A DNA stretch of 64,000 bases from Pseudomonadota bacterium. GTDB taxonomy: Bacteria; Pseudomonadota; Gammaproteobacteria; UBA1113. The notes beneath the pieces were generated by a model. It was given only the letters and a program-made list of their open reading frames with translations. It had not been told where the DNA came from and ran no database searches. The stretch covers positions 19,310-83,309 of the forward strand of contig JAJYCX010000006.1 of NCBI GenBank assembly GCA_021778015.1. The letters are read 5' to 3'. Each line of letters begins with the position of its first letter. Positions within the stretch are counted from its first letter, which is position 1. Made by a program: the position numbers and the translations under genes. Shown piece by piece: positions 160 through 54,871 of this stretch.

Positions 160-197
160 CCCATGTGATCGTAAAAAATCAGTTGAAGGGAACTAAA

Positions 198-13771: not shown

Positions 13772-14496
13772 ATGTGGTCTATGGTCAGCACAGTGTCAAA
13801 GCAGCTCTAAGCGAAGGACGTCTACCGCAAACACTCTACACACATAAAGCAAAGGCCGCTGCTGTGCGTCAATTTTTATTAGATCTAGATTGTAAAGTCC
13901 CCGTTAAGATTGTAGAACCCAATGTTTTAGATGAAATGACGGCAGATGCTAATCATCAAGGCTGGGTGGCTGTATATGCGAAAGCGATGAAAATGTATCA
14001 TGAAGATAAATTGACGGAACTTTTGGCTCAGCAAACCAAACCTTTATTTCTAGTTTTAGATGGCGTGCAAGATCCGCATAATTTAGGTGCGTGCTTACGC
14101 AGTGCCGATGCTGCGGGCGTTACCGCAGTCATTATTCCTAAGGACAATGCGGTAGGGTTAACTTCTACGGTGCAAAAAGTAGCGAGTGGGGCTGCAGAAA
14201 ATGTGATCCTTATTCAAGTCACCAATTTGGCACGTAGTTTGCAAGAATTAAAACAAGCTGGAGTGTGGTTATATGGCTTAAGCGATGATGCAACCACTTC
14301 ATTGTATAAGATTAACTTAACGGGTTCTATTGCTTTAATATTAGGCGCCGAAGATAAAGGTTTGCGCCGCTTAACCCGCGAAGCCGCCGATGCTTTAGTG
14401 TTCTTACCTATGCTAGGCCAAGTTTCCAGTCTCAATGTTTCCGTTGCAACCGGTGTTTGTCTTTATGAAGCATTGCGGCAGAGAAGTAGTTTGTAG
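13768..14496 (+). CDS. rlmB: 23S rRNA (guanosine-2251-2'-O)-methyltransferase
   Basis: A 242-residue SPOUT (SpoU/TrmH) methyltransferase that modifies G2251 in the P-loop of 23S rRNA. An N-terminal substrate-binding domain (about 1-75, beginning NVVYGQHSVKAAL) precedes the knotted catalytic domain, which has SpoU motif 1 (NLGACLRSADAAG, about 108-120), motif 2 (LILGAEDKGLRRL) and motif 3 (SLNVSVATGV, about 221-230). It starts inside the rnr stop codon. A 200-base gap follows before the biosynthetic operon, with no clear terminator. Confidence 0.95.
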   Translation: MNVVYGQHSVKAALSEGRLPQTLYTHKAKAAAVRQFLLDLDCKVPVKIVEPNVLDEMTADANHQGWVAVYAKAMKMYHEDKLTELLAQQTKPLFLVLDGVQDPHNLGACLRSADAAGVTAVIIPKDNAVGLTSTVQKVASGAAENVILIQVTNLARSLQELKQAGVWLYGLSDDATTSLYKINLTGSIALILGAEDKGLRRLTREAADALVFLPMLGQVSSLNVSVATGVCLYEALRQRSSL

Positions 14497-14603
14497 ATTA
14501 AGACACCACCTATAAATTTCTTGTTACTTTTTTTACCTCCAGTATTGTCATTATGTGCAAGCAAAAAAGCTATCTTCAGTTTAAAAAACCGAACGACCAT
14601 GAC

Positions 14604-14632
14604 TTGCGTAGAAAGCGCGGTTTTATTATTAT
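14604..14632 (+). promoter_or_regulatory. Possible promoter of the biosynthetic operon
   Basis: TTGCGT (14604-14609) and TATTAT (14627-14632) have a 17-base spacer and lie 65 bases ahead of the exporter start. This is the only reasonable sigma-70-like match I see in the 200-base gap. No operator palindrome is evident. Confidence 0.4.
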
Positions 14633-14696
14633 TCGCATTATGGATATTCATGAAATACACTATTTTCTATATTTATTAAAATAATGAGAGAAATAT

Positions 14697-16274
14697 ATGC
14701 AAGACAACGTAATAAATGAAAAAATATATGCGAGAAAAGGTGCACTATTATTCGCGATAATGCTTGCCTGTTTTAGCGTACCATTAAACTTTACAGCTGG
14801 ACCGATGGCGCAACCTTATATAGCAGCGAGCTTGCCAGGTAGTGCCGTTGCGCTGTCGTGGATAACGAATGCATTTTTTCTTAGCTGTGGTAGTACATTG
14901 ATGGTAGCAGGTGTAATGGCTGATCAATATGGACGTAAAAAGATATTTGGGATAGGCCTGTTGATCTCTACTGTCACCTCATTGCTGATGCCTTTTTCTC
15001 CCAGTGTGTGGGTTCTTGACTTATTACGTATACCGCAAGGCATTGCAGCTGCTTGTGCATATGCGGGTGGCATCTCTATTCTTGCTCAAGAATTTGAAGG
15101 GCATACTCGAGCAAAAATATTTAGTGTGATAGGCATTACTTTCGGAGCAGGATTAGCTTTCGGGCCAACGATAGCAGCCGTACTCATTACTTATTTTGGT
15201 TGGCATGCTGTTTTCTTTGGTAGTACGGTGTTGAGTGTCATTGCGCTGATTGTTTGTCTACTGTGCATGCATGATAGCAAAGATCCAAATGCCAAAGGAC
15301 TCGATAAGATTGGCGCCACTTTATTTACGCTGATGTTAGCGCTGTTTACTTATGCGGTGATAGAAGCACCCGTTCGCGGTTGGTTAAGTCCCACTGTGAT
15401 TGTTCTATTATTGGTAGTTGCGCTGCTTTTATGCCTATTTATTTGGGTAGAAAAAAGAATAGTCCATCCAATGCTGGATTTATCTTTGTTCTCCTATCCT
15501 GCTTTCGTCGGTGCACAACTACTGCCGCTTGCTGCTGCCTATTGTTACGCGGTGCTGCTAGTCATTCTGCCATTGCGATTCATTGGCATTGAACAAATGA
15601 ATGCACTTGATGCCGGCATTTTAATGATTTGGTTTTCTGGTTCTTTATTGTTTGTTCCATTTTTAGCGGCAAGTTTAACCAAGTGGATATCTGTCGGTAT
15701 GCTTTCGGGTGGCGGCATGGTGATTTCCATTATAGGATTGATGATGCTGAATACTCTTCCCATGGGCATGCACGATTGGAGTATGAAATTGGTGCTATTC
15801 ATCATTGGGTTTGGTGTCGCTGTGCCATGGGGATTGATGGACAACTTAGCCGTGTCTGTGGTTCCTAAAGAGAAAGCAGGGGTGGCGATTGGTATTTTTG
15901 GTGCTCTACGCGTGTCATTTGATAGTACTGCTATCGCGATTGTGGGATCGCTATTGGCCCTTTTTATGTCACATAGTTTGACTATTGCAACGAGTGGGTT
16001 AAGTGCAACACAGATTGCAGGCGCGACGGCACAATTGGCAGCAGGTGCGATGGAGCACGCTAGCCAACTGCTACCTACGGTGCCACACAATCAGCTTATT
16101 TCCGCTTATAACTATGCATTCCATCAATTAATAAACGTATTGATTGTACTGACATCGATCTCAACTGCGCTGATTTTTATTCTGCTTTATCGCACAAAAA
16201 TTGGTGAAGGCCTGGAGATCGACACGACTCAAAAAACGGCTGAATTATCGGCTTGCATCGAGAAGAATATATGA
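14697..16274 (+). CDS. MFS exporter, 14-TM DHA2 (EmrB/QacA) type
   Basis: A 525-residue inner-membrane proton antiporter. Motif A between helices 2 and 3 reads GVMADQYGRKKIF (about 75-87), and motif C-like glycine/proline-rich sequence (GAGLAFGPTIAAV, about 148-160) marks the drug-export antiporters. About 14 hydrophobic segments fit the DHA2 family. It is the first gene of a ten-gene coupled operon; its stop overlaps the start of the AfsA-like gene by four bases. It most likely exports the product of the operon and may give self-protection. ATG 14697 has a GAGAG ribosome binding site. Confidence 0.88.
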   Translation: MQDNVINEKIYARKGALLFAIMLACFSVPLNFTAGPMAQPYIAASLPGSAVALSWITNAFFLSCGSTLMVAGVMADQYGRKKIFGIGLLISTVTSLLMPFSPSVWVLDLLRIPQGIAAACAYAGGISILAQEFEGHTRAKIFSVIGITFGAGLAFGPTIAAVLITYFGWHAVFFGSTVLSVIALIVCLLCMHDSKDPNAKGLDKIGATLFTLMLALFTYAVIEAPVRGWLSPTVIVLLLVVALLLCLFIWVEKRIVHPMLDLSLFSYPAFVGAQLLPLAAAYCYAVLLVILPLRFIGIEQMNALDAGILMIWFSGSLLFVPFLAASLTKWISVGMLSGGGMVISIIGLMMLNTLPMGMHDWSMKLVLFIIGFGVAVPWGLMDNLAVSVVPKEKAGVAIGIFGALRVSFDSTAIAIVGSLLALFMSHSLTIATSGLSATQIAGATAQLAAGAMEHASQLLPTVPHNQLISAYNYAFHQLINVLIVLTSISTALIFILLYRTKIGEGLEIDTTQKTAELSACIEKNI

Positions 16275-17377
16275 AAAACTCAGTAATCACACCAAAACTG
16301 GTCCACAAAGATTCAGCAGAAGATGTGTTGGTGAGACAACCACGTCCTGCATTGCCATTGCAAATAGAGAAGAGCACGGCGGATCAATGGGTGCAAGCAG
16401 GACTGGGTTGTTTATTAGAATTGTACAAACCCCATGAGCAAAATGGTGATCTATTGCGTTTGGCCTTAGCAAATAGTAATCAAGGGTTGACTAGCCTCTT
16501 TGATAGGACTATCCCTTTGGATCCAGCATGGGAGCCATATCGTGCATTGCCTTATCAAATTATAGAAGCTGAATTTTCAGCGTCACATGCTGGCGTACTG
16601 CAGCAGCTTGAAAATTTTTATGCTAACGCAAACAAAACAGAACACCCTATTGCCGAACTTTTTCGTTCAACCTCTTACAAGATGATTAATCAAGCAGATC
16701 ATTACTTCTTTTATCGCAAAGATCATGAGCATGTGCCTGGTACTATGTTGATTGAGGCTCAACGCCAAGCGGTTTATACCCATGTGTATACAATGACACA
16801 ACATGTTCGTGGAGATGTCACTGTTAGTCTCGATAAACTATATTGCAACTTTTATGGTTATGTTGATCTAATGTATCCGCTTGAATTGGTTGTTGATGAT
16901 ATGCAAGAAGAGCGAGATGCGCGCGCCAAAAAAATAACATACCGTGTTGCCCTTTTTCAAAGGAGCAAGCTGATTGCGATCATAGATTCAGTGGTTAACA
17001 TCATTGACATGAACCAATTCAAGCGTTTTCGCAACCTATTTCTTTATGAAAAAAATGATCACCCGTACGTACCTATTCAAGCCGATAAGGTACAGTGCAG
17101 GTTGGTTGATGCAGAGAACAAGGAATACCCCGCTGAGTGTGTCAGCATTTCTCGCGATAGATGCATGACTACCTATCACAACGTAGCGATAGATGATATC
17201 CGTAGTATCAAAATCCATAGTAATGGACTTGTATTCTCAAGCGCTATTGAACCCGAAGATAGGTCCCAGAAAAACGCTGTTTGGCGCTTTCCTCACTTAA
17301 GCCAGGAGCAGCTAATGGATATGGGCGGGATCATCAAACGCGGATTTATATTGCAAAACTACGAGGTATATCAATGA
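16271..17377 (+). CDS. AfsA-type hot-dog domain protein (A-factor synthase-like)
   Basis: A 368-residue protein starting at ATG 16271, within the exporter's stop codon (ATGA overlap), with GAGAAG upstream. Residues about 135-260 contain the signature of the AfsA repeat (PF03756): a histidine/proline motif DHEHVPGTMLIEAQRQAVY (about 144-162), then the beta-rich hot-dog strands. In Streptomyces, AfsA homologues condense a beta-ketoacyl thioester with dihydroxyacetone phosphate to give a butenolide phosphate. The N-terminal 130 residues may be a degenerate first repeat. The last 110 residues (from about 258) do not look like AfsA; a stretch with ECVSISRD and NGLVFSSAI is faintly PilZ-like, but I cannot confirm that. 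A plain hot-dog dehydratase or thioesterase role is the alternative. Confidence 0.72.
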   Translation: MKNSVITPKLVHKDSAEDVLVRQPRPALPLQIEKSTADQWVQAGLGCLLELYKPHEQNGDLLRLALANSNQGLTSLFDRTIPLDPAWEPYRALPYQIIEAEFSASHAGVLQQLENFYANANKTEHPIAELFRSTSYKMINQADHYFFYRKDHEHVPGTMLIEAQRQAVYTHVYTMTQHVRGDVTVSLDKLYCNFYGYVDLMYPLELVVDDMQEERDARAKKITYRVALFQRSKLIAIIDSVVNIIDMNQFKRFRNLFLYEKNDHPYVPIQADKVQCRLVDAENKEYPAECVSISRDRCMTTYHNVAIDDIRSIKIHSNGLVFSSAIEPEDRSQKNAVWRFPHLSQEQLMDMGGIIKRGFILQNYEVYQ

Positions 17378-17667
17378 ACCAAACAATCAGCCAGATCATC
17401 CAAACTGCCATTGATGCGCAAGCACCCTTGTTACCTGTGCCAATCGATACGTCCCAGGGAGAAGCGACTCCTCTTTTTGGGCCAGGAAGCGTTTTAGATT
17501 CATTGGGGTTAGTGACACTCATTTTGAATATAGAAGAAATGGTTGAAATGCAGATGGGCGTTGCTATCACGATCGTCAGCGAGAAAGCGATGTCTGCATA
17601 CCGTAGCCCCTTTGCTACCATTGGTTCTTTAGCCGAATTCATTACCTCATTAATACAGAAGAAATAA
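17374..17667 (+). CDS. Acyl carrier protein 1 of the biosynthetic operon
   Basis: A 97-residue carrier protein. ATG 17374 overlaps the previous stop (ATGA) and has GAGG upstream. The phosphopantetheine attachment serine is in SVLDSLGLVTL (Ser about 46), the standard DSL motif, followed by acidic helix II (NIEEMVE). It is unrelated at sequence level to the primary AcpP of this window (35457-35699), so it is a dedicated carrier. No phosphopantetheinyl transferase lies nearby; a genomic one must serve it. Confidence 0.85.
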   Translation: MNQTISQIIQTAIDAQAPLLPVPIDTSQGEATPLFGPGSVLDSLGLVTLILNIEEMVEMQMGVAITIVSEKAMSAYRSPFATIGSLAEFITSLIQKK

Positions 17668-17668
17668 C

Positions 17669-18370
17669 ATGCGTAAGCAACTAGTGACATTGATTACAGG
17701 CACCCGTAAAGGCATTGGGAAATATCTAGTTAAACACTATTTGCAGCAAGGGCAGCAAGTGGTAGGGTGTAGTCGCGCACCAGTAGATTGGCACTTACCT
17801 GGTTACACACATTTCTGTGCTGATGTAGCAGATGAAGAAGCGGTTCGTCGGATCATCACTTTTATTCGTACGACTTATGGACAGCTGGATCATTTGATTA
17901 ATAACGCGGGTATAGCGAGTATGAATCATTTTCTGCTTACACCGTTAGACACAGCACAAAATGTTTTTCAAACGAATCTGATGGGTTCCTTTCTATTTTG
18001 TCGTGAAGCAGCCAAGCTGATGGCGCCTAAGCAGTTTGGCCGTATTGTTAATTTCACGACGGTTGCTACACCGCTTAATTTGGAAGGGGAGGCTATGTAT
18101 GCCGCTTCTAAAGCAGCCATTCTTTCGATGACCGCGATTGCTGCACGAGAGTTGGCACCACTCGGTATCACAGTTAATGCGATTGGGCCCACGCCCATTG
18201 AGACGGATTTAATTCGTTCTGTCCCTAAAGACAGCATGGATCGTTTACTCTCGAGACAAGCCATCAAACGATTTGGCACCTTTGAGGATGTTGCAAACGT
18301 CATCGATTTTTTCTTACGCAAAGAAAGTGCATTTGTTACGGGTCAGAATATTTATTTGGGAGGCGTATGA
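17669..18370 (+). CDS. SDR oxidoreductase (3-oxoacyl-ACP reductase-like)
   Basis: A 233-residue classical short-chain dehydrogenase. The nucleotide-binding motif is TGTRKGIG (about 10-17), NNAG is at about 79-82, and the active-site YxxxK is YAASK (about 144-148). The catalytic serine position appears to be threonine (FTTVA instead of the usual SS), a tolerated change that is worth checking. It should reduce a keto group on a carrier- or lactone-bound intermediate with NADPH. It starts one base after the ACP 1 stop and overlaps the ligase by four bases. Confidence 0.88.
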   Translation: MRKQLVTLITGTRKGIGKYLVKHYLQQGQQVVGCSRAPVDWHLPGYTHFCADVADEEAVRRIITFIRTTYGQLDHLINNAGIASMNHFLLTPLDTAQNVFQTNLMGSFLFCREAAKLMAPKQFGRIVNFTTVATPLNLEGEAMYAASKAAILSMTAIAARELAPLGITVNAIGPTPIETDLIRSVPKDSMDRLLSRQAIKRFGTFEDVANVIDFFLRKESAFVTGQNIYLGGV

Positions 18371-19749
18371 ATACGCTCTGTGAATTGTTCAGCCGATTTG
18401 AAGCGGCAAAAGAGAAAAAAGCGCTCATAACCTCTAAAGAAGAGATGACATACGGGCAGTTGTTAGCTAAGATTCAGGATGCTGACTTGCTCGCACGAAA
18501 ATACAGTTGTGTAGGTATAACTGTGTTGCTGGTTGGGGATTATTCTTCATCGACTATTGCCTGTTTGCTCGCATTGTGGCGTTTAGGCAATGTGGTGGCA
18601 TTGTGCTGCGCGGCCCAGGATGCGCTCGTTAATGAGCGTGCTCATCTTGTTCAAGCAGCGCGAGTAATCAAAATAGGAGAAGGTAATCAAATAGATATTT
18701 TTCCTACTGGTATTGAAACTTCCCATCCAATACTGAGCGACATGAACCACCGTAAAGAAGCCGGCTTTGTGATTTTTTCCTCCGGGTCAACGGGGCAGCC
18801 AAAAGCAAGCATTCACTCAGCTTACGCCATGCTCGATAAACACGTATTAAAAAAACGATGTTTTACTTCCATTTCCTTTCTTTTGTTTGATCATATCGGT
18901 GGATTTAACACGCTGTTCTATGTTCTATTCAATGTAGGAAAGCTTGTTATACCTGCATCGCGGTCACCAGATGTGGTCGCACAAGCGATAGCACAGCATC
19001 GCGTGGAGACCATCACGGCGTCGCCTACCTTTCTTAATTTGCTTGTGATGAGCGGCGCATTAATGCGCTATGATTTCAGTAGTCTTAAAGTCATCAACTA
19101 TGGAACAGAGCCCATGCCAGAGAGTCTGCTAGTGGTGTTAACTCAGCAGCTGCCTTGGGTAAGATTCTCACAAGCGTATGGGCTAAGTGAGACGGGTGTG
19201 ATGCCCGCTAAATCGGTTTCATCTTTGTCCACTTGGATAACATTTGATAAAGAGCAATGTAATATTCGTATTGTGGATGGCTTGTTGGAAGTGAAGGTAA
19301 AGACAAGCATGCTTGGTTACATCAACGCCTCTTCGCCATTTACATCAGATGGTTATTTTAAAACGGGCGATGCAGTGCAGCAAGAAGGCGATCGCTACCG
19401 TGTGCTAGGGCGACAATCAGACCTCATCAATGTTGGCGGTGAAAAAGTCTACCCTAACGAAATAGAAAATGTGCTTCGCAATATGCCTGGGGTACTTGAA
19501 GTGGCGGTGACGGCATTGGAGAACCCGATCATGGGGCAGGTGGTTGGCGCCGCATTTAAATTGCAGACAACCGAAAAATTAACATCATTTCGTCGTCGTC
19601 TCTATGAATTTTGTCATCAAAGATTGCCAGCCTCGTACATACCACGAAAAATCTTGATCACCGATGCCCTATTACATACAGCGAGATCAAAAAAATTAGG
19701 GGCGTTCGCTTTGCAATCTACATTGATTAAAGAGGGGGAAATGGTATGA
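18367..19749 (+). CDS. AMP-forming acyl/aryl ligase (ANL superfamily)
   Basis: A 460-residue adenylating enzyme that activates a carboxylic acid and probably loads it onto one of the flanking carrier proteins. Conserved elements: the P-loop IFSSGSTGQPKAS (about 137-149), AYGLSETG (A5, about 272-279), the hinge region FKTGDAV and GRQSDLINVGGEKVYP (about 338-366), and the catalytic lysine in ARSKKLG near the end. It is shorter than a typical acyl-CoA synthetase (500-560), resembling compact ligases of specialised-metabolite clusters. Start and stop both overlap neighbours by four bases. Confidence 0.85.
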   Translation: MNTLCELFSRFEAAKEKKALITSKEEMTYGQLLAKIQDADLLARKYSCVGITVLLVGDYSSSTIACLLALWRLGNVVALCCAAQDALVNERAHLVQAARVIKIGEGNQIDIFPTGIETSHPILSDMNHRKEAGFVIFSSGSTGQPKASIHSAYAMLDKHVLKKRCFTSISFLLFDHIGGFNTLFYVLFNVGKLVIPASRSPDVVAQAIAQHRVETITASPTFLNLLVMSGALMRYDFSSLKVINYGTEPMPESLLVVLTQQLPWVRFSQAYGLSETGVMPAKSVSSLSTWITFDKEQCNIRIVDGLLEVKVKTSMLGYINASSPFTSDGYFKTGDAVQQEGDRYRVLGRQSDLINVGGEKVYPNEIENVLRNMPGVLEVAVTALENPIMGQVVGAAFKLQTTEKLTSFRRRLYEFCHQRLPASYIPRKILITDALLHTARSKKLGAFALQSTLIKEGEMV

Positions 19750-19979
19750 ATAGAAATCTGATACGTGCTGAATTGGCTAAGCTACTAGATTTGCCTATTT
19801 CTACCATTACAGACGAATTAAAAATTAGCAATGTTGGTGGATGGGACTCGATTGCATGGGTGTCACTGGTTGCATTTTTGATAGGTGAGCTTGATTGCAA
19901 AATAGAGATACAAAAGCTCATGACTATTCAAACAGTCGGCGATTTGTGGCCCCTAGTTGAAACAGGCGCGATGATATGA
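19746..19979 (+). CDS. Acyl carrier protein 2 of the biosynthetic operon
   Basis: A 77-residue carrier protein with the phosphopantetheine serine in GGWDSIAWVSL (Ser about 37), the WDS form of the motif usual in polyketide and nonribosomal carrier proteins. It is flanked by four-base overlaps with the ligase and the KAS III, so the three are probably made in fixed ratio. The ligase and this carrier form the usual loading pair. The GWDS motif distinguishes it from ACP 1 (LDSL). Confidence 0.83.
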   Translation: MNRNLIRAELAKLLDLPISTITDELKISNVGGWDSIAWVSLVAFLIGELDCKIEIQKLMTIQTVGDLWPLVETGAMI

Positions 19980-20986
19980 GTTTGTCTTTTGCTGATGTGC
20001 AAATACGTGCAGTAACCGCTGCTTTACCTAAAACACGGTTAGAAATGAAAAGTCTTGCCTCCTTATATGGTGAGACTGAAATGAAACGCATTGTTGAAAG
20101 TACAGGTATCTCATCTGTGCGTGTTGCTGGGAAGTTAACTACAGGAAACCTATGCACGGCTGCTGCTCGTCATCTGCTTGCCAATGCAAATGTATCAGCA
20201 AGTGATATTGATGCGGTTGTCGTAGTGACGCAAACACCAGATGATTTCATGCCCGGCGTGGCTTTGGGCATTCATGCGTCTTTGGGTTTGAGGCGAAGTT
20301 GCCTGACCTTTGATCTTAATTTCGGTTGCCCTGGTTTTGTATATGGTCTGTTGCAAGCCGCTATGCTTGTGCGAGCAGGGCATAAAAATGTCCTATTGTG
20401 CGCAGGAGATGTCACCACTAAGCTGATTAAGCCGGGAGATAGGCATGTTCAGGCAGTATTTGGTGACGCCGTGGGTGTCGCTTTACTAGGGCCTGGCTCA
20501 GAAAAAATCGATTTTTTGTTTGATACGGATGGTGCGGGCAGACCGCATCTTCATACCCCACTCACCTATAATTTGTTTCCTGACAGAGCAGCAACGGCGG
20601 GTCATTTATATATGGATGGCAGTGAAGTCATGAAATTTGCACTTTCGCGTGTGCCCAGCATGGTTAGCAAGCTACTTGACCAGTGTGGACTGACTCCAGC
20701 AGAAATTGACCTTGCGTTCTTTCATCAGGCCAACATGCTCATGCTTAAATATCTGAGAAAACTAACTGGTTTTACGCCAAATCAATGGGTGGTTGACTTG
20801 GCCGAAACAGGGAATACAGGTCCTGCCTCGATTCCATTGCTGATGGCTAGATTGCAAAACATTCATGCCATACGCTTTAACAAAGTGATATTATGTGGAT
20901 TTGGTATCGGATTATCAGTTGGAGTAGCTATTACTTCTCTGAAAGAGACACAGCGGATTTCACCCATTGAGGTGGAAGTAAGCTAA
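19976..20986 (+). CDS. 3-oxoacyl-ACP synthase III-like ketosynthase
   Basis: A 336-residue thiolase-fold condensing enzyme of the KAS III group, starting Claisen condensation from an acyl thioester and malonyl-ACP. The full Cys-His-Asn triad is visible: NFGCPGF (Cys about 122), FHQAN (His about 253) and ETGNTGPAS (Asn about 283). It is clearly different from the housekeeping FabH at 30628-31590, so it is specific to this operon. Its N-terminus (LPKTRLEMKSLA) is also unlike FabH. It should make the beta-ketoacyl-ACP that an AfsA-type enzyme would use. A 34-base gap with AAGGAGAA follows. Confidence 0.88.
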   Translation: MSLSFADVQIRAVTAALPKTRLEMKSLASLYGETEMKRIVESTGISSVRVAGKLTTGNLCTAAARHLLANANVSASDIDAVVVVTQTPDDFMPGVALGIHASLGLRRSCLTFDLNFGCPGFVYGLLQAAMLVRAGHKNVLLCAGDVTTKLIKPGDRHVQAVFGDAVGVALLGPGSEKIDFLFDTDGAGRPHLHTPLTYNLFPDRAATAGHLYMDGSEVMKFALSRVPSMVSKLLDQCGLTPAEIDLAFFHQANMLMLKYLRKLTGFTPNQWVVDLAETGNTGPASIPLLMARLQNIHAIRFNKVILCGFGIGLSVGVAITSLKETQRISPIEVEVS

Positions 20987-21020
20987 GAGCATCACATTAA
21001 CTTAAATAAAGGAGAACTCT

Positions 21021-21311
21021 ATGTTTTTGATTATCAGTAATTATGTAGTCCCTACCACGCAAGTGGATCCGCATCGTGCGCAGCACAGTGGATGGGTTGA
21101 GCAATACATCAAGAGCGGTGATTTTATCATGGCAGGACCACGGCGTGGCAAAATCGGTGGTGTAATCGTCAGCAGGTCAATGGATAAAGATAAACTAATG
21201 AAGATTTTGGCGGAAGATTCATTTGTCAGTGAAAATCTTGTTGAGATGCAGATTGTTGATTTTGATGCACCATTTACGTCAGATGAACTTAAGAAATTAC
21301 AAGATATGTAG
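21021..21311 (+). CDS. YciI-like small protein
   Basis: A 96-residue protein with the dimeric ferredoxin-like fold pattern of the YCII family (PF03795): a conserved His near position 18-20 in the first helix (RAQHSGWVEQYIKSGD), a GPRRG turn, and an FDAPFTSDE end. Relatives include chloromuconolactone-type dehalogenases and small enzymes of uncertain activity. In this operon it might act as a lactone or cyclisation helper, but nothing in the sequence proves that. AAGGAGAA precedes ATG 21021; this is the only gene of the operon with a full independent ribosome binding site. Confidence 0.75.
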   Translation: MFLIISNYVVPTTQVDPHRAQHSGWVEQYIKSGDFIMAGPRRGKIGGVIVSRSMDKDKLMKILAEDSFVSENLVEMQIVDFDAPFTSDELKKLQDM

Positions 21312-21320
21312 GTCGTGATA

Positions 21321-23555
21321 ATGAATGATCATAAAGAAGAAGTGGTAATTGTAGGAGCAGGCCCCGTCGGCCTGCTCTTAGGTTGCTGGCTCAGAAAATT
21401 AGGCGTAGGCGTGCGCGTGCTAGAAAAGCGTGCAACTCGCTCGACCCAATCCAAAGCGGTATCGATGAATGCCTATTCACTTGCCATTTTGCATGCACTG
21501 GGTATATATGACCAGTTCGATGCAGTGGGAAAGCGACTGCAGGATCTTCATCTGTATTGGCAACAAAAGCGCCTCATGCATGTGAATTACAGACGGTTGC
21601 CCTCCAAGTACAATTATAGTCTTTGCTTGGTACAACCCAAAACAGAAGCGTTGTTAGAAGCCCATTTTTTAGCATCCGGCGGGATATTACAGCGTGGAGT
21701 AGAAGTCGTTCGTCTGCAAGCGGATTCCGATGCTATCCATGTCTATGCACATCATGCTGAAACCGGTAGAGAAGAGCGCCTCACAGCACAATATCTTGTC
21801 GGTTGTGATGGCAGCAAAAGTATGGTTCGCGAGCAATTGGGCCTTTCGTTTACCGGCAGAGATCATGGTACCGGATTTATCATGGTGGATGGCACTATTA
21901 GTTGGTCTGGCGATGTGAAACGTGTGCACTATTTTGTTAGTGAGGATGCTTTTTTTATTTTGATTCCGTTATCTGATGATAAGCATCGTATCATCATTAG
22001 AACACCCAATAATGATAAAGAAAAAATAGTAGGTAATAAGTTAGCCGTTTATCAAGACCTTATTATGAAATATGGGCCATCGGGTCTTATTCTGCACGAC
22101 ATTGTTTGGGAATCGAATACCACTTACCATAACCGCTTAGCTGAACACTACGGCCATGGGCGTGTTCTGCTAGCGGGTGATGCTAGTCATATTTTTAGTT
22201 CCATTGGTGGGTTAGGAATGAACACGGGCTTCCAAGATGCACTGGCACTCGCTTGGCGTTTAGCGGGCATTTTAAGAAAACGCTTTCGCGAAACGGTGTT
22301 AGCCTCATATGAATTAGAACGTCGTACTTTAACCCAACAATTGATTGATAGCACGAATCAAATGACGGCGCTCATCACACGGGTCAATCGTGATCCAGCA
22401 TCCTTGCGTGATTGGCTGCCGATTATGGCTAATAGGCAGCGCTTGGCTACATTACCGATGCACTTCTCTGGATTAAATCAGCGTTATGAAAAAGGGGTAT
22501 TAGTTGAAAATAACGCGGGTTTAGTTGGGCGGCTTATTCCTTATTTTAAATTGACACATCAGGAAAAATATTTATGCAGTTATGACCTTGTTGATGGCTG
22601 CTATTTCTATCTGATTTATGGCAGTACCTTGCCTAATGCTGCTTTCTGGGAACAATACAAAGAAGTAGTCAAACTGATCCAGCTTCAAAATCCGGATGAG
22701 TGGCAACAGGTGTGTAACTGTCTTGGTTTGCAAACTGAAGAAATGGTGCTTATGCGACCTGATGGTATTGTTGCAGCGAAAGCAGCTATTAACAATGCAA
22801 GTAATGTTTTTTCTCTTATTCTTAACCCATTGATAACACGAGTAGATTCCAGTATGAAACCTTTACTTATTTTTGATCTTGACGGAACTTTGGCCGATAC
22901 GTCACCCGGTTTAGTTGCTGCTTTAAATGCCGTGCTGGCTGACTATAACGAGGCACCCGTTGCACCTGCTTCCGTGCTGCATCTGATTAGCCAAGGCGTA
23001 GTTGGCCTCTTGGGAGGAGGCTTTGGTTCTGCTTATGCCACGATGCCAGATGAAAAGAAACAGGCACTTTCTCAAGCATTCGTAGCGTATTACGAACAGA
23101 ATATGCTGAATGAAATAGCGCTTTATCCTGGCATTGAAACAGCACTGAATGTGCTGAGTGCGCAGGGATTTAAGATGGCTATTTGTTCAAACAAGAATAC
23201 ACTTCTTGTCGCACATATCCTTGAGCATCTGCATATCAGACATCATTTTCTAGCTGTATGTGGCGGTGATTTTTTTATGGGAATAAAAAAGCCAGATCGT
23301 CGTCATGTAGAAGGCACCATGAGGGAAGCCGGTTTTGACGAGTCAACAGCGCATGCGATTTTTATCGGCGATGCGATGTCAGATGTAAACGCAGCAAAAA
23401 ATACGGGGATCCCAAGCGTCTTTCTTACTTACGGCTATGCTGATGTGGCGCCGAATGCTTCGGGGGCGGATGCAGTCGTCCATCATGCTAATGATTTGCC
23501 AGCGGTTATTTTAACCTTGTCAAGCTCTCTGGAATCGGAGAAGGCCCTGGCATGA
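21321..23555 (+). CDS. Fusion of group A flavin monooxygenase and HAD phosphatase
   Basis: A 744-residue two-domain enzyme, started at ATG 21321 with AGGT upstream (an in-frame GTG at 21315 is also possible). Residues 1 to about 505 are a class A flavoprotein monooxygenase of the PheA/UbiH type: FAD-binding GAGPVGLLLG (about 11-20), GCDGSKSMVREQLG (DG motif, about 164-177) and AGDASHIFSSIGGLGMNTG (GD motif, about 288-306). From about 513 a complete HAD hydrolase follows, with FDLDGTLADT (nucleophile Asp), CSNKNT, KKPDRRH and IGDAMSDVNAAKNTG, similar to phosphoglycolate phosphatase Gph. The junction is in one uninterrupted frame. The HAD part could remove phosphate from a phosphorylated lactone intermediate; the monooxygenase would hydroxylate an aromatic or enol-type substrate. 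Confidence 0.88.
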   Translation: MNDHKEEVVIVGAGPVGLLLGCWLRKLGVGVRVLEKRATRSTQSKAVSMNAYSLAILHALGIYDQFDAVGKRLQDLHLYWQQKRLMHVNYRRLPSKYNYSLCLVQPKTEALLEAHFLASGGILQRGVEVVRLQADSDAIHVYAHHAETGREERLTAQYLVGCDGSKSMVREQLGLSFTGRDHGTGFIMVDGTISWSGDVKRVHYFVSEDAFFILIPLSDDKHRIIIRTPNNDKEKIVGNKLAVYQDLIMKYGPSGLILHDIVWESNTTYHNRLAEHYGHGRVLLAGDASHIFSSIGGLGMNTGFQDALALAWRLAGILRKRFRETVLASYELERRTLTQQLIDSTNQMTALITRVNRDPASLRDWLPIMANRQRLATLPMHFSGLNQRYEKGVLVENNAGLVGRLIPYFKLTHQEKYLCSYDLVDGCYFYLIYGSTLPNAAFWEQYKEVVKLIQLQNPDEWQQVCNCLGLQTEEMVLMRPDGIVAAKAAINNASNVFSLILNPLITRVDSSMKPLLIFDLDGTLADTSPGLVAALNAVLADYNEAPVAPASVLHLISQGVVGLLGGGFGSAYATMPDEKKQALSQAFVAYYEQNMLNEIALYPGIETALNVLSAQGFKMAICSNKNTLLVAHILEHLHIRHHFLAVCGGDFFMGIKKPDRRHVEGTMREAGFDESTAHAIFIGDAMSDVNAAKNTGIPSVFLTYGYADVAPNASGADAVVHHANDLPAVILTLSSSLESEKALA

Positions 23556-25513
23556 CATCCACTGTTCGCCGAGCAGATATTGATGGGCTGAGAGCCATTG
23601 CTGTTTTGACCGTGATGCTGTTTCACTTTAATGCGAACTGGTTGCCGGGTGGATTTGTTGGCGTAGATATTTTTTTCGTTATATCGGCGTATCTCATTAC
23701 AGGTCGTATTACGGCGATGATATATGATCATCGGTTCTCGCTTACTCACTTTTATGTTCGGCGAATAAAACGAATTTTCCCTGCATCTATTCTTGTTTTT
23801 ATTGTGACCGTGTTTTTAGCCAGTCAATTGAATGGGTTATTGTTACCGGATGCAAGATACGTGCTAGGATTTGTTTTTAATATGCATACCAGTAATTATT
23901 TTACTGCGGATGGTAGTGTTAACTTTTTTCTGCATTATTGGTCACTCTCAATAGAGGAGCAATTCTATCTATTTTGGCCGTTATTATTACTACCGTTGTT
24001 ACTGATGACGAATCAGCGACTCGCGCGTGTTTTGAGACTCTATCCTCTCGTATTAATTCTCTTAATTGCAGTTGTCTGTTTCGCATTGGGCATAAAGTGG
24101 AGTATGGATCCCGTTTCTCATGAAAACCTTTATTTCTTGTCCATTCCACGCTTTGGTGAAATGGCTTGTGGCGCATTGATTGCTATTTTGCCACCTATGC
24201 GAAATGTGCAATGGGTTTCTCGATTAGGTGTGTATGCAGGTATGGGATTGTTGCTTATTTCATGCTGTTTTCTAGGCGAAAAGCACTATCCTGGCTGGCG
24301 TGTTTTACTCCCTTGCGTTGGGGCGTCATTGCTTATTTATTTCAGTATGGCAAATGCAAGCAACCCGACGTGGATTGATTGGCTGTTAACGAGACGCGTA
24401 CTGGTGTTTATTGGATGCATTTCGTATTCGCTCTACTTATGGCATTGGCCTATCTTTTCTATCACACGCTTTATTGGCGGTGCGACTATACCAACACAGT
24501 TTTTCATTCCCTTATTTGCGCTTACTTTTTTGTTGGCTATATTGACCTATCATTTTGTCGAAAAACCGTTTCAACGATCCACATCTAGAGCAACCATAGT
24601 GTTTCCTACCTTTACTGTAATGAACGCGCTGGTATTATGCTTGCTGTTTTCACTAACAGGCATTGAGACGTTAGGGATCCCGCCTGTAATAGGCAAGCGT
24701 TACACTAATGTGACAGTCAATGGCCAAAATATGCGTTTAACAGATGGCTGGGTCGCTCCTTGTTTTGATCGAACCTTTCCCAATCCAACACGTACCACCG
24801 TTGACAACCTATGTGCGTTGGGCGCACCTCATGTCAAACCGACAGTATTACTGGTTGGTGACTCGCATGCCGCAGCGCTAGGGGCACTCATTGATGCCAT
24901 GGGTAAAAAAGAAGGGTTTCGCGCTACCATGGTCGCTGTGGGGGCCTGCCAGTTGAGTGAGGATGGGATGGCACATAGGGCACCTGCTGTGGTGATGACA
25001 CCTGAGCGAATTAAAAACTGCGATATGATGCTGCGATTTATTCGCGATAACCATCAATATTACAAAGCAATTTTTGTTGCAAATGCTTTCAATCTTTTTT
25101 CGGGTAACTTTAATGTGTTTACCAAGCAGAATGACACCCCCCCTATTTTTAAGCTAGATGCGTTGCGGCGAATTGCAACTAAGACGCCTATTTATTTTTT
25201 CTATGACGAGCCAGTGATCGATCGCTCTATCCAAAGATCACCACTATTCGATTATTTAGGTATTCGACTAGGTGCAAACGTCATTCCACATGGAGAAGAG
25301 GGAAACGTTGTGATACGCAATCTGATATCAAAAGAACCCAATTTTTACTGGGTCGATTTAAGTGTAGTCTACAATGAGTTTAAGAAAGATCGATTTATGT
25401 ATAACGGTTGGCCTGTCTATGCTGATACCAATCACTTAAATGGAAACGGGGGGAGGGTATTGGCCAAGCTATTTTTGAGTTCAGCGAGAGTAGGGCCACC
25501 GACTAAGGCCTAG
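23552..25513 (+). CDS. Membrane acyltransferase 3 with C-terminal SGNH domain (OafA/YrhL type)
   Basis: A 653-residue inner-membrane O-acyltransferase. Residues about 1-370 carry roughly ten membrane segments of acyltransferase family 3, with the start DIDGLRAIAVLTVMLFHF and GGFVGVDIFFVISAYLIT. The periplasmic C-terminal part is an SGNH-like esterase/transferase domain with VLLVGDSHAAALG (Ser nucleophile, about 430-442) and DTNHLNGNG (Asp-His pair, near 628). Such proteins move acyl groups across the membrane and put them on sugars or metabolites. It is the last gene of the operon and overlaps the monooxygenase by four bases. It probably acylates the exported product, though a role in lipopolysaccharide O-acetylation is possible. 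Confidence 0.87.
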   Translation: MTSTVRRADIDGLRAIAVLTVMLFHFNANWLPGGFVGVDIFFVISAYLITGRITAMIYDHRFSLTHFYVRRIKRIFPASILVFIVTVFLASQLNGLLLPDARYVLGFVFNMHTSNYFTADGSVNFFLHYWSLSIEEQFYLFWPLLLLPLLLMTNQRLARVLRLYPLVLILLIAVVCFALGIKWSMDPVSHENLYFLSIPRFGEMACGALIAILPPMRNVQWVSRLGVYAGMGLLLISCCFLGEKHYPGWRVLLPCVGASLLIYFSMANASNPTWIDWLLTRRVLVFIGCISYSLYLWHWPIFSITRFIGGATIPTQFFIPLFALTFLLAILTYHFVEKPFQRSTSRATIVFPTFTVMNALVLCLLFSLTGIETLGIPPVIGKRYTNVTVNGQNMRLTDGWVAPCFDRTFPNPTRTTVDNLCALGAPHVKPTVLLVGDSHAAALGALIDAMGKKEGFRATMVAVGACQLSEDGMAHRAPAVVMTPERIKNCDMMLRFIRDNHQYYKAIFVANAFNLFSGNFNVFTKQNDTPPIFKLDALRRIATKTPIYFFYDEPVIDRSIQRSPLFDYLGIRLGANVIPHGEEGNVVIRNLISKEPNFYWVDLSVVYNEFKKDRFMYNGWPVYADTNHLNGNGGRVLAKLFLSSARVGPPTKA

Positions 25514-25588
25514 CGCATTAGCCATTACAATATTTTTATAAAAAATTTAGCTTTCTAAAGACCATTAACTCAATGCTAGGAGAACAGT

Positions 25589-26743
25589 ATGTTTTTGTTT
25601 CGTAACAGCTACAACAATAGAAAGGCCGCATCTTTTTTTAATCAGCATCGATTATTTCAGAGTTCACTGTCACAAGATTTTTCTAATAAAGCAGGTATCT
25701 TGCAAAAAAATACGTTGCTAGAACAGAACGGTATGAAAAAATATGACCATACTGGAATAGAAACCGATCATACAAGTCAAAATGAATTATGGTTTCTTTT
25801 TAGAGGGGAAACGTTATTTTTACAAACACAGGAAAATAGTGTAACGATACCTACTTCTTCCGCACTCAAACAATTTAATTTACCCTTTGAAGAAAAACAG
25901 CACATAGGCAAACATGATAGTAAAAATTGTTTTATTCTAAATCTTCCGAAAACAATGGAGCTACCTGCATTACCTAAGGATATGAATTTTTATCCTTTAC
26001 GCGAAGCACATGTTTTATTAGCCGAAAAAAGTATCTTTAGCATGCTACTTAAGGCTATTCAGATTTCTTTCTGGGATAAGAAAACCCAATTTTGTGGCTC
26101 TTGTGGAACAAAAACGTCATTGGATGGTAAAATGATGGCGAAAGCTTGCAGTGATTGTGGTAGCCTTACTTTTGCTCAGTTTTCTCCCGCTATGTTGGTA
26201 TTAATTTGGCGTAATGATGAAATCTTATTGGCACGTTCACACACATTTCCACCAGGCCGCTATAATATATTAGCGGGATTTGTTGAGCCAGGAGAAACAG
26301 TAGAAGAAACAGTGGTTCGAGAAGTAAAAGAAGAAGTTGGTATTGAAATAAAAAACTTACGTTATGTAGCATCCCAGCCCTGGCCATTTCCAAGCAATTT
26401 GATGTTTGGTTTCACGGCAGAACATGCCGCCGGGAACATTTGTATCGATCAAGAAGAATTAGACGATGCTCAATGGTTTTCAATTGATAACTTACCTTCC
26501 TTACCACATTCAGTGAGCCTCTCGCGACAAATGGTAGATGCGCATATTGCTTCAAGAAAAAAAATGAATATACAGACTAGTGAATGGCCCCTATTAAAAT
26601 CAATATCGCCTAAAACTCCTTTCTTGAGAAGGACTACCATCACGGCCCTTGCAGCAACAGGATTATTGATGGCAGGATTTTGGAAACCAATGAAAGATTA
26701 TGTTCAATCTTATATAGAGGATCAGCCAAAGAATAGGCCATAA
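25589..26743 (+). CDS. NudC-type NAD(H) pyrophosphatase with N- and C-terminal extensions
   Basis: A 384-residue Nudix hydrolase. The core (about 165-330) is NudC: a four-cysteine zinc ribbon (FCGSCG ... ACSDCG), a full Nudix box (GFVEPGETVEETVVREVKEEVG) with the catalytic glutamates, and the NudC signature SQPWPFPSNLM. Such enzymes hydrolyse NADH and remove NAD caps from RNA. E. coli NudC has 257 residues; this one has about 50 extra N-terminal residues with a basic, Ser/Phe-rich sequence, and a C-terminal tail with a hydrophobic stretch (TALAATGLLMAGFW, about 352-365) that could be a tail anchor. ATG 25589 follows AGGAGA. It stands alone after the biosynthetic operon. Confidence 0.87.
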   Translation: MFLFRNSYNNRKAASFFNQHRLFQSSLSQDFSNKAGILQKNTLLEQNGMKKYDHTGIETDHTSQNELWFLFRGETLFLQTQENSVTIPTSSALKQFNLPFEEKQHIGKHDSKNCFILNLPKTMELPALPKDMNFYPLREAHVLLAEKSIFSMLLKAIQISFWDKKTQFCGSCGTKTSLDGKMMAKACSDCGSLTFAQFSPAMLVLIWRNDEILLARSHTFPPGRYNILAGFVEPGETVEETVVREVKEEVGIEIKNLRYVASQPWPFPSNLMFGFTAEHAAGNICIDQEELDDAQWFSIDNLPSLPHSVSLSRQMVDAHIASRKKMNIQTSEWPLLKSISPKTPFLRRTTITALAATGLLMAGFWKPMKDYVQSYIEDQPKNRP

Positions 26744-26919
26744 CGAATTATCCGAAAGAAAAGGTGCAATCCATTGGCATAAGGACTTCATTTGCTTCTG
26801 TTGCGATCATAGAGCAGTTAAAATTTGGCGCTATATTTAATACGTCCAATCTTGACTAAGAAAGTTACAGTGCTATAAAATAATAGCATCATTCTTGAAT
26901 ACATTAGGAACTCTTCCCA

Positions 26920-27696
26920 ATGCAGCACTATTTTTCTCTACACCCCTATGTTTTATATTTTTTCCTATTGGGAATGGGTTTCTTATCTGGGTTTATAGAT
27001 ACGATTGCCGGTGGAGGCGGACTCATTAGTGTTCCGGCGCTGATGTATAGCGGTATGCCTGTGACTCTGGCTTTAGGAACCAATAAATTTCAGAGTGTCT
27101 TTGGGCTGACCATGGCGGTCTATAAATACCATAGGAGAGGATTTATCAATTTCAAAATGATTTATCGTGGGTTGCTGATGGGGGTACTCGGTGCTGGTTC
27201 GGGAGCTGTTTTAGTTAATTATATATCCAATCAGTTTATGAAATATATTATCCCATTCTTATTATTGGGAGTGTTTGTTTTCAATTTGCTGTATAAAGAA
27301 TTAGGATTAAAACCTGGAAAAAAGCATCTTCCTGAACACCTATTCTTTCCATTATTTGGTTTTATTTTGGGATTTTATGATGCTTTTTTTGGACCTGGAA
27401 CGGGAAATTTTTGGATTATCGCCATTGTTTTCTTTTTGGGATATACCTTTCTAGAAGCTTCTGGTTATGCGAAAGTTTTAAATCTCAAGAGTAACTTAAT
27501 TGCGCTGTCTATCTTTCTTTATTATGGTGAGGTGAGTTTCGTTATAGGTATTATCATGGGCATAGGACAACTTGCTGGAAGTTACTTAGGCGCACATATG
27601 GTTATTTTAAAAGGGTCAAAATTGGTGCGGCCACTCTTTATGGCGGTGATTTTTGTGAATATTCTAGTATTGTTTTATGATTGGATTAAAGTTTAA
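26920..27696 (+). CDS. TauE/SafE family membrane permease
   Basis: A 258-residue inner-membrane protein with about eight hydrophobic segments in two repeats, PF01925. The first repeat has the characteristic FIDTIAGGGGLISVPAL motif (about 25-41) and the second FGPGTGNFW (about 163-171). Family members export sulfite or sulfoacetate or carry other small anions; this one resembles the YfcA subgroup, whose substrate is unknown. The 176 bases upstream hold no other feature I can name. A MITE-like element separates it from the convergent Bcr/CflA gene. Confidence 0.85.
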   Translation: MQHYFSLHPYVLYFFLLGMGFLSGFIDTIAGGGGLISVPALMYSGMPVTLALGTNKFQSVFGLTMAVYKYHRRGFINFKMIYRGLLMGVLGAGSGAVLVNYISNQFMKYIIPFLLLGVFVFNLLYKELGLKPGKKHLPEHLFFPLFGFILGFYDAFFGPGTGNFWIIAIVFFLGYTFLEASGYAKVLNLKSNLIALSIFLYYGEVSFVIGIIMGIGQLAGSYLGAHMVILKGSKLVRPLFMAVIFVNILVLFYDWIKV

Positions 27697-33720: not shown

Positions 33721-34659
33721 CTATAGCTTATTTACAACCGCCTGAAAAACTTCAGCCACTGTAATAGCTTCCATAGATGGGCCTTGAATCAGCGTTAAAT
33801 CTTTTAAGTTAGGATAAGGCCCTGTGCGGGTTAAACTAGTATAGCCAAATAAGGCAATCAAGGGCACATTGCTGGCACAGGCTACATGCATTAAACCCGT
33901 GTCCGGAGATATAAATAGTTTTAAATATTTCATTAAAGAATACAACTGAGGCACCGTGGTTTGATCGATAAAATTAACAATATTCGGTGCGCGTTTTTCT
34001 AATTTTCTACCCAACACTTTTTCACTATTGGATCCTGTTATGACCAATTTAATCCGCGGGTTATGGACATGCAGTTTTTGAGCGAGCTCAACGATGTGTT
34101 CAAAGGGCCATATTTTAGGATGACTTAATTTTTTCAAAAGAGCAAAGCGTTTTTTAGCAATACTATGGCACCCGATTTGGCACCCTATTAAAATATCTTT
34201 TTCTCGATCGATTTTGTGTAATCTAAAAATAGCTTCTACATGAGCATAGTCTTCTGCGTTAGGAAATAAGCGATAATTCTTTTCTACGGGGCAATTGGTT
34301 AATGACAGTAATTTTTGCATAAATAATACGGCTTGCTCCGCCTGATGGATCTGCGGATCGTTAGATCCTATGGTGTCTAGTGGAGCGTTTAAAGCGCTTA
34401 AATAGTGTTGAGCCTCAGGACCGTTGTGAATGTTGATGCCTCTGTCATAGGAGGGAAGTGTATCCAACTCCGGCCGTACAAAAACATGATGGATGTCTGG
34501 ATTATTTCTTAAAACCTCGGCAGACAGTTCAGACAAGGCAATGATGTCGATTTTTACAGAAGGGCAAGCTTGTTTAAGCAAATGAATCGCTGGCGTACAC
34601 ATGAGGGTATCGCCCAAGCGCGCGGGCGTGACCATAACCACACTTTTGTTTTCAAACAT
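33721..34659 (-). CDS. Glycosyltransferase family 9 (heptosyltransferase-like)
   Basis: A 312-residue GT-B fold enzyme. The N-terminus MVTPARLGDTLMCTPAIHLLK (about 9-29) and the GT9 acceptor/donor motif SPDTGLMHVACA followed by PLIALFGYT (about 253-275) identify the ADP-heptose:LPS heptosyltransferase family. It probably adds a sugar to the lipopolysaccharide core at the inner face of the membrane. It lies on the opposite strand within the fab operon, so it is an insertion relative to the usual gene order. The exact acceptor is not predictable. Confidence 0.85.
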   Translation of the reverse strand: MFENKSVVMVTPARLGDTLMCTPAIHLLKQACPSVKIDIIALSELSAEVLRNNPDIHHVFVRPELDTLPSYDRGINIHNGPEAQHYLSALNAPLDTIGSNDPQIHQAEQAVLFMQKLLSLTNCPVEKNYRLFPNAEDYAHVEAIFRLHKIDREKDILIGCQIGCHSIAKKRFALLKKLSHPKIWPFEHIVELAQKLHVHNPRIKLVITGSNSEKVLGRKLEKRAPNIVNFIDQTTVPQLYSLMKYLKLFISPDTGLMHVACASNVPLIALFGYTSLTRTGPYPNLKDLTLIQGPSMEAITVAEVFQAVVNKL

Positions 34660-54849: not shown

Positions 54850-54871
54850 ATACACAAGGAGGTAAGTGCTT

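What the first reader, a model, noticed from the sequence alone, without database searches (positions are those of the whole stretch)
14697..25513. AfsA-centred specialised-metabolite operon in a gammaproteobacterium
Ten genes on one strand, mostly with ATGA-type overlaps, code a DHA2 exporter, an AfsA-like hot-dog protein, two carrier proteins, SDR, AMP ligase, KAS III, YciI-like protein, flavin monooxygenase-HAD fusion and an SGNH acyltransferase. Known chemistry of AfsA/MmfL-type enzymes (condensing beta-ketoacyl thioester with dihydroxyacetone phosphate, then dephosphorylation and reduction) matches the KAS III, HAD and SDR parts. A butenolide, gamma-butyrolactone or furan signal or exported metabolite is the best guess. 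Such clusters are well known in actinomycetes; a Legionellales-type example with a fused monooxygenase-phosphatase and a dedicated ligase/ACP loader may be undescribed. No receptor gene is present nearby.
Basis: partly seen in the sequence, partly recalled or inferred. Interest (0 to 1): 0.88.

Follow-up and report, generated by a model that had tools for sequence, protein, structure and literature searches.

The report
Mobile butenolide-type biosynthesis operon
A ten-gene operon, apparently moved as a unit between uncultured bacteria related to amoeba-infecting species, looks set to build and export a small lactone (butenolide) from an unusual hydroxylated starter, a chemistry best known from Streptomyces hormones.

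Summary
In detail: ten same-strand genes at 14697-25513, six of nine junctions being 4-base ATGA overlaps. Gene 2 passes the AfsA threshold (49 vs 24 bits) but is far below the actinomycete butyrolactone-synthase model (33 vs 200) and has one recognisable hot-dog region. New: ligase, SDR and first carrier protein form a starter cassette. The ligase falls in a 100/100 clade of 11 ligases, 10 of them directly beside an SDR gene, including that of the thiomarinol plasmid pTML1. The related mupirocin set makes a hydroxyacyl-ACP starter, so the SDR probably serves the starter, not a butenolide. KAS III would extend it, AfsA condense it with DHAP, the monooxygenase-HAD fusion finish it. The same ten genes occur in one of five congeners at another site, 95.4% identical, dS 0.14 against 1.35-1.55 for rnr and rlmB; all ten are intact and look constrained: recent transfer of a working unit. 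The product is unproven; no ScbR-type receptor above cut-off was found.

The parts
14697..16274 (+). DHA2-type MFS exporter
   Evidence: PF07690 123 bits; EmrB model 141 bits, under its cut-off 230
16271..17377 (+). AfsA-type (phosphorylated butenolide synthase-like) protein, 368 aa; recognisable hot-dog region about residues 127-262, AfsA-type VHK motif at residues 8-26, about 110 N-terminal and 110 C-terminal residues otherwise unassigned
   Evidence: PF03756 49 bits vs cut-off 24; NF041195 33 vs 200; motif alignment
17374..17667 (+). ACP1, carrier protein of the starter cassette, 97 aa
   Evidence: no Pfam match; 30-36% identical to a small protein in four other cassette loci: L052, L060, L062, L063
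17669..18370 (+). SDR reductase of the starter cassette
   Evidence: 43% and 47% to the cassette SDRs of Rhizobium T1470 and G731, 27% to the pTML1 SDR; LGGV C-terminus shared with five cassette SDRs
18367..19749 (+). AMP ligase of MupQ/TmlQ type
   Evidence: 38% over 337 aa to the pTML1 ligase; 100/100 clade of 11 cassette ligases
19746..19979 (+). ACP2, acyl carrier protein
   Evidence: PF00550 26.7 bits vs cut-off 20.8
19976..20986 (+). KAS III with Cys-His-Asn triad kept
   Evidence: aligned with the FabH of the window, Cys, His and Asn positions identical
21021..21311 (+). YciI-like protein, role unknown
   Evidence: PF03795 35 bits vs cut-off 24
21315..23555 (+). fusion of class A flavin monooxygenase (about 8-490) and HAD phosphatase (about 517-735)
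   Evidence: PF01494 225 bits, PF13419 102 bits; none of 15 other monooxygenase places at E 1e-30 in 350 class genomes is fused to a HAD
23552..25513 (+). AT3 (OafA-like) acyltransferase with SGNH domain
   Evidence: PF01757 103 bits, PF19040 67 bits
14660..25482 (.). stretch that is 95.4% identical to the second copy (L029:3823-14645) and so marks the transferred unit
   Evidence: blastn
25589..26743 (+). NUDIX (NADH pyrophosphatase-like) protein; next to the operon in both copies but more diverged (89%) and split in two ORFs in the second copy
   Evidence: PF00293 75 bits

Best explanation
The operon is a horizontally acquired biosynthetic gene cluster for a small exported butenolide-type metabolite. 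Proposed path: (1) ligase + ACP1 + SDR make a short hydroxyacyl-ACP1 starter from a dicarboxylate or its CoA ester (inferred from the mupirocin cassette, where malonyl-CoA gives 3-hydroxypropionyl-ACP). (2) KAS III condenses it with malonyl on ACP2 to a beta-keto-hydroxyacyl thioester (inferred from family and intact triad). (3) The AfsA-type enzyme condenses that thioester with dihydroxyacetone phosphate to a phosphorylated butenolide (inferred from AfsA, MmfL and GdsF). (4) The HAD half removes the phosphate and the monooxygenase half oxidises the product; YciI may help in a dehydration or rearrangement. (5) The AT3-SGNH enzyme may O-acylate it and the DHA2 transporter exports it. Shown here: gene content, AfsA membership, cassette kinship of the ligase, transfer as a unit and constraint on the ten genes. 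Inferred: every reaction and the product.
For: PF03756 above threshold, with H154, G157, E162, R165 and Q166 shared by five AfsA-domain proteins. Ligase clade 100/100 with the pTML1 ligase; in 10 of its 11 loci an SDR gene is directly adjacent and in L063 an SDR match lies about 2 kb away; the 8 outgroup ligases have no directly adjacent annotated SDR or ACP gene. The pTML1 ligase scores 239 bits against 85 for the best PDB ligase (different programs). MupQ/MupS/MacpD function is stated in PMC10098928 (passages). An AfsA-like domain condensing 3-ketothioesters with DHAP in a proteobacterium, with putative phosphatases in the cluster, is in PMC7756379 (passages). KAS III + ACP + butenolide synthase + flavin monooxygenase is also the methylenomycin logic (PMC12593393, passages). 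In two of the five other AfsA-domain loci viewed (G306, G544) a gene of Pfam family HAD abuts the AfsA gene. Ten intact genes, total dN/dS 0.14.
Against: AfsA similarity is limited to about 105-120 residues, with one recognisable hot-dog region instead of the two of Streptomyces AfsA (recalled). The SDR is only 27% identical to the pTML1 SDR and, by its C-terminus, belongs to a subtype otherwise seen beside acyltransferase-type genes; ACP1 has no meaningful match to the pTML1 ACP. So the starter is uncertain. The outgroup ligases were the weaker hits of the same search, so the clade test is not blind to similarity, and the tree program warned of long branches. Three of five other AfsA loci show no HAD gene beside AfsA. 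No acyltransferase that would load ACP2 lies in the operon; FabD of the cell would have to serve. The order of steps 4-5 and the YciI role are guesses.
Confidence: 0.58

Rival explanations
1. The operon makes an acyl modification of a surface polysaccharide or lipid: the cassette makes a hydroxyacyl group, the AT3-SGNH enzyme transfers it, and the AfsA-like protein is a dehydratase or thioesterase.
For: Cassettes of the same SDR subtype lie beside GNAT- or acetyltransferase-like genes and, by eye, polysaccharide genes in several genomes. AT3-SGNH proteins typically O-acylate surface sugars (recalled).
Against: No glycosyltransferase or nucleotide-sugar gene was recognised by eye between 11 and 30 kb; the nearest glycosyltransferase-like ORF lies at 33721-34659, 8 kb away. 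The DHA2 exporter, KAS III, flavin monooxygenase and HAD have no obvious role in it. AfsA passes its own curated cut-off, while a FabZ-type dehydratase reached only 20.5-21 bits against the cut-off of 24 (L028).
Confidence: 0.17
2. A hormone system of the Streptomyces type: the product is a gamma-butyrolactone or butenolide signal sensed by a dedicated receptor of the same cell.
For: AfsA family membership.
Against: Best ScbR-family match in the genome 29 bits against a cut-off of 150; 13 of 14 control genomes also give a match at E 1 (genome 83.6% complete). No regulator gene recognised by eye between 11 and 30 kb. Equivalog score 33 of 200. A dedicated exporter and this many tailoring genes are atypical for hormone loci (recalled).
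Confidence: 0.12
3. An AvrD/MmyD-like variant in which the enzyme condenses the beta-ketoacyl thioester with a phosphorylated sugar other than DHAP, giving a syringolide- or methylenomycin-like product.
For: Gene set close to methylenomycin (KAS III, ACP, butenolide synthase, flavin monooxygenase; PMC12593393 passages). The second copy is preceded by a 3'-truncated 3-dehydroquinate-synthase-like gene.
Against: The Pfam scan of the protein gave AfsA only. The cyclase-like fragment is absent from the window copy and lies outside the shared unit.
Confidence: 0.1

Closest known systems
AfsA-type phosphorylated butenolide synthases (AfsA, MmfL, SabA; GdsF domain of the gladiostatin PKS)
   Same: PF03756 domain with HVPG..EA.RQ motif; beta-ketoacyl thioester supply and a phosphatase encoded alongside
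   Different: Window protein has one recognisable hot-dog region, an unassigned C-terminal part and a low score to the GBL equivalog; the thioester would come from a hydroxyacyl starter cassette plus KAS III, not from a PKS
Priming cassette MupQ/MupS/MacpD of mupirocin and its counterpart on the thiomarinol plasmid pTML1
   Same: Ligase in the same 100/100 clade as the pTML1 one, SDR and ACP adjacent
   Different: SDR and ACP1 of another subtype (SDR 27% to pTML1, ACP1 no match); followed by KAS III and accompanied by AfsA instead of a type I PKS
Methylenomycin cluster (mmyA, mmyC, mmyD, mmyO)
   Same: ACP + KAS III + butenolide synthase + flavin monooxygenase logic
   Different: MmyD is AvrD-like with a proposed pentulose substrate; MmyO is LimB-like with separate reductase MmyF (passages); no hydroxyacyl cassette named there
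Hydroxyacyl-type cassettes of other proteobacteria (L060, L061, L062, L063, L064, Rhizobium T1470)
   Same: SDR and ligase of the same kind, ACP1 homologue in four of the six; L063 also has a KAS III and a second ACP
   Different: GNAT- or acetyltransferase-like genes (by eye) in several; no AfsA, YciI or AT3-SGNH homologue at E 1e-3 (L052 at E 0.1 gave weak monooxygenase and AT3 matches)

Membership tests
AfsA family (PF03756) | Score above the curated cut-off | tested here: met
   49 vs 24 bits
AfsA family (PF03756) | Conserved HVPG..EA.RQ core | tested here: met
   Window protein has HVPGTMLIEAQRQ; H154, G157, E162, R165, Q166 invariant in five sequences; the catalytic role of E and R is recalled
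AfsA family (PF03756) | Two tandem hot-dog domains, as in Streptomyces AfsA (recalled) | tested here: inconclusive
   Only residues 127-262 recognised plus a VHK motif at 8-26; structure prediction switched off
AfsA family (PF03756) | DHAP-dependent release of beta-ketoacyl thioesters | not testable with these tools
   needs an assay
ScbA/BarX gamma-butyrolactone synthase (NF041195) | Score above the equivalog cut-off | tested here: not met
   33.4 vs 200 bits
Streptomyces-type butyrolactone signalling system | ScbR/ArpA-type receptor | tested here: not met
   29.4 vs 150 bits in own genome, 83.6% complete
MupQ-type priming cassette | Ligase of the MupQ/TmlQ clade | tested here: met
   100/100 clade with the pTML1 ligase, 8 weaker-hit ligases outside; MupQ itself was not in the tree, and the name TmlQ is recalled (record: fatty acid--CoA ligase family protein)
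MupQ-type priming cassette | SDR and ACP genes adjacent | tested here: met
   gene order 17374-19749
MupQ-type priming cassette | SDR orthologous to MupS/TmlS | tested here: inconclusive
   27% to the pTML1 SDR; C-terminus of the other subtype
MupQ-type priming cassette | Makes a hydroxyacyl-ACP from a dicarboxyl-CoA | not testable with these tools
   needs an assay

The most novel reading that the evidence does not exclude
A new class of exported butenolides built on an omega-hydroxyacyl starter (for instance 3-hydroxypropionyl + malonyl + DHAP, a C8 skeleton whose free hydroxyl could close a second ring), finished by a self-contained phosphatase-monooxygenase, and passed as a ten-gene unit among Dot/Icm-bearing, probably protist-associated bacteria, where it may act on competitors or on the host cell.
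Probability: 0.2. Interest if true: 0.75.

Novelty: new variant of a known kind. Interest (0 to 1): 0.52.

Why it matters
AfsA-type chemistry is well known from Streptomyces hormones and rare in Pseudomonadota: PF03756 passed its cut-off in 2 of 396 phylum genomes and 4 of 369 class genomes, each count including the window's own genome. A compact, intact, recently transferred operon that joins a mupirocin-type starter ligase to an AfsA-type enzyme predicts an undescribed small lactone. It also offers a self-contained set of enzymes to test how phosphorylated butenolides are elaborated, which PMC7756379 (passages) says needs further work except for butyrolactones.

Tried and rejected
Searches without result: AfsA protein in plasmids at E 1e-3 (none), IMG/VR (none), PDB sequences up to E 10 (none), the 397 phylum genomes other than its own that were drawn (none). 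FMO-HAD in 350 class genomes at E 1e-30: 15 genomes matched, own included; of the 15 other places none covers the HAD part, and the one long frame (G349) carries no HAD after the monooxygenase.

Considered and dropped: a chance string of genes (second copy in the same order, purifying selection). A plain thioesterase/dehydratase as first choice for gene 2 (AfsA was its only Pfam hit at E 0.01; a FabZ-type protein stays under the AfsA cut-off). A PilZ-like reading of the C-terminal part of the AfsA protein (an impression from memory; no Pfam match at E 10). GC content is no argument: 43.9% against 39.5-43.8% in the other 10.8-kb stretches sampled. Promoter- and terminator-like sites are not above shuffles (20 vs 30.9 and 13 vs 12.2). 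The ACP hit in Tistrella pTM3 had no SDR or ligase homologue beside it.

Host: unnamed. FabD of the window scores 294 bits to 3tqe, which I recall as Coxiella burnetii FabD, and 303 to 1mla, which I recall as E. coli, so it looks no closer to that genus; a thymidylate kinase search added nothing. Asked for 20 genomes, the family search gave 11, few for a family such as Legionellaceae (recalled). Legionella itself was not tested.

Papers: four searches bear on novelty, the rest on mechanism. The cassette paper that I recall (mupirocin/thiomarinol priming cassette) is not held; a symposium book with the gene names showed no passage in the part held.
Full report
Observation. With starts corrected (AfsA ATG 16271, ACP1 ATG 17374), six of nine junctions are ATGA overlaps and the other gaps are 1, 34 and 3 bases; the flanking gaps are 200 (rlmB) and 75 bases (NUDIX gene). 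No tRNA and no Rfam family at gathering score were found in the window. The flanking genes were checked too: RNase R, RlmB-type methylase, NUDIX, TauE.

AfsA-type protein. It scores 49 bits against the PF03756 cut-off of 24 and 33 against the 200 required by the ScbA/BarX equivalog model. The match covers residues 134-237. A profile built from five other AfsA-domain proteins matches residues 139-255 and, weakly, a VHK motif at 8-26 (only three query sequences, so E-values there are loose). Five aligned proteins, the two copies among them, share H154, G157, E162, R165 and Q166. The rest of the N-terminal 110 and the C-terminal 110 residues are unassigned. So it is a member of the AfsA family by the curated threshold, but a divergent one, and not a butyrolactone synthase by the equivalog model.

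Rarity. The protein itself was found in 2 of 51 genomes of the relatives search: the window genome and G003, of the same genus, in which six genomes were searched, own included, one of them (G005) only 66% complete. It was in none of the 397 other phylum genomes drawn, no plasmid record and no IMG/VR contig. PF03756 passed its cut-off in 4 of 369 class genomes and 2 of 396 phylum genomes, each including the own genome. Five other AfsA-domain loci were viewed: L033 (G306), L034 (G302), L035 (G334), L069 (G544) and L066 (Mycetohabitans plasmid, found with the G334 protein). Their proteins are shorter. In two, L033 and L069, a gene of Pfam family HAD abuts the AfsA gene; in the other three I saw none beside it.

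Starter cassette. The ligase gave 29 plasmid records at E 1e-20. I opened 12: four of the ten best and eight weaker ones. The four strong ones (Bradyrhizobium japonicum, Burkholderia stagnalis, Rhizobium sp. T1470, Pseudoalteromonas pTML1) have an SDR gene next to the ligase. In three an ACP-sized gene and a PKS-type gene follow (ACP annotated on the Bradyrhizobium and pTML1 records; on the Burkholderia record both are judged by size and by eye). In Rhizobium the ACP-like gene lies upstream, separated by a GNAT-like gene (by eye). In 398 phylum genomes 6 had a ligase hit at E 1e-45, the own one included. All five others have an SDR homologue nearby, directly adjacent in four; in L063 the nearest SDR match is about 2 kb from the ligase. 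Three of the five (L060, L062, L063) have a homologue of ACP1. A tree of 19 ligases puts these five, the four strong plasmid ones and both copies from this genus in one clade with 100/100 support, apart from the eight weaker hits. Those eight have no directly adjacent SDR or ACP gene in their annotation, which the tool describes as incomplete for plasmid records; the Sphingobium one has two reductase genes about 2.5 kb away on the other strand. As the outgroups were chosen among weaker hits, this is not an unbiased test. Many inner forks of the clade are open, so the nearest kin of the window ligase is not resolved, and the program warns of long branches. MupQ itself was not in the tree.

The pTML1 ligase is 38% identical over 337 residues, the SDR 27%, and ACP1 has no meaningful match to the pTML1 ACP. 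The SDR ends in LGGV, a C-terminus that it shares in kind with those of five cassettes (L052, L060, L063 and L064 with LGGV, L061 with VGGV) and not with the pTML1 and Bradyrhizobium SDRs. So the ligase kinship is firm, while the exact starter is open. In mupirocin, MupQ, MupS and MacpD turn malonyl-CoA into a 3-hydroxypropionate starter on MacpD (PMC10098928, passages). That the pTML1 genes are TmlQ/TmlS/TacpD and use succinyl-CoA to make 4-hydroxybutyryl is recalled from a paper that is not held.

Remaining enzymes. KAS III keeps Cys, His and Asn when aligned with the FabH of the window. The flavoprotein half of the fusion is nearest in the PDB to polyketide oxygenases and a Baeyer-Villiger monooxygenase, the HAD half to predicted phosphatases and phosphoglycolate phosphatases. 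In 350 class genomes only the own one showed the fusion at E 1e-30.

Mobility and constraint. The G003 copy (contig VFJV01000130.1 of MAG Bin_72_2) has the same ten genes in order at 92-99% protein identity. DNA identity is 95.4% over 10823 bases, from 37 bases before the first ATG to 31 bases before the last base of the AT3 gene. The two genomes differ by dS 1.55 and 1.35 at rnr and rlmB but by 0.14 across the operon; dN/dS is 0.14 in total and 0.03-0.33 per gene (one pair only, Nei-Gojobori, small counts in the short genes). The surroundings differ: rlmB on the left in the window, a 3'-truncated 3-dehydroquinate-synthase-like gene in G003. G004, the nearest of the three congeners with an rlmB hit (94%), has rlmB and the TauE gene with one Transposase_31-family ORF between them and no operon there. 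This is recent horizontal spread of a complete unit, with a NUDIX gene at 89% beside it in both copies.

Mechanism. The most economical reading is starter cassette, KAS III extension, AfsA-type condensation with DHAP, HAD dephosphorylation, flavin oxidation, optional O-acylation and export. Precedents: the AfsA-like domain of GdsF of Burkholderia gladioli condenses 3-ketothioesters with DHAP in vitro, and its cluster encodes putative phosphatases (PMC7756379, passages); for methylenomycin, KAS III, ACP, a butenolide synthase and a flavin monooxygenase are proposed or shown (PMC12593393, passages). None of these reactions has been shown for the window's proteins.

Signal or metabolite. The best ScbR-family hit in the genome is 29 bits against a cut-off of 150, and 13 of 14 control genomes also give a hit at E 1. 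A dedicated exporter and tailoring enzymes are present. An exported metabolite is therefore favoured over a Streptomyces-like hormone.

Print. Searches for AfsA with butenolide, proteobacteria and gene cluster (five papers, listing), AfsA with hot dog, gamma-butyrolactone and Gram-negative (none), two of AfsA, Gammaproteobacteria and Legionell (938 papers; the 15 listed hold no AfsA) and Legionell with biosynthetic gene cluster and butyrolactone (ten papers, listing only) showed me no description of such an operon. The library lacks most subscription papers.

Noticed in passing
L033 9102-10557, L069 8558-10054, L034 10185-14055: Another kind of gammaproteobacterial AfsA locus: a 247-265 aa AfsA-domain protein, next to a HAD-family gene in G306 and G544, and with GST-like and VUT-like transporter genes (names by eye) in G306 and G302.
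   Followed up: partly
   Followed up: partly
L029 3303-3842: Truncated 3-dehydroquinate-synthase-like gene directly upstream of the operon in the second copy, absent from the window copy.
   Followed up: partly
window 14496-26920: The site downstream of rlmB holds different genes in the window, G003 and G004 (a Transposase_31-family ORF there), as if it were an insertion hot spot.
   Followed up: partly
window 165-2915; G000:C31:13678-19308 (L071): Three large ORFs in a row with kinase-like starts (GSFGKVYEGYE and similar) in a genome with Dot/Icm-family genes; possible secreted proteins, by eye only.
   Followed up: no
window 54866-63145: A single ORF of 2759 aa, not examined.
   Followed up: no
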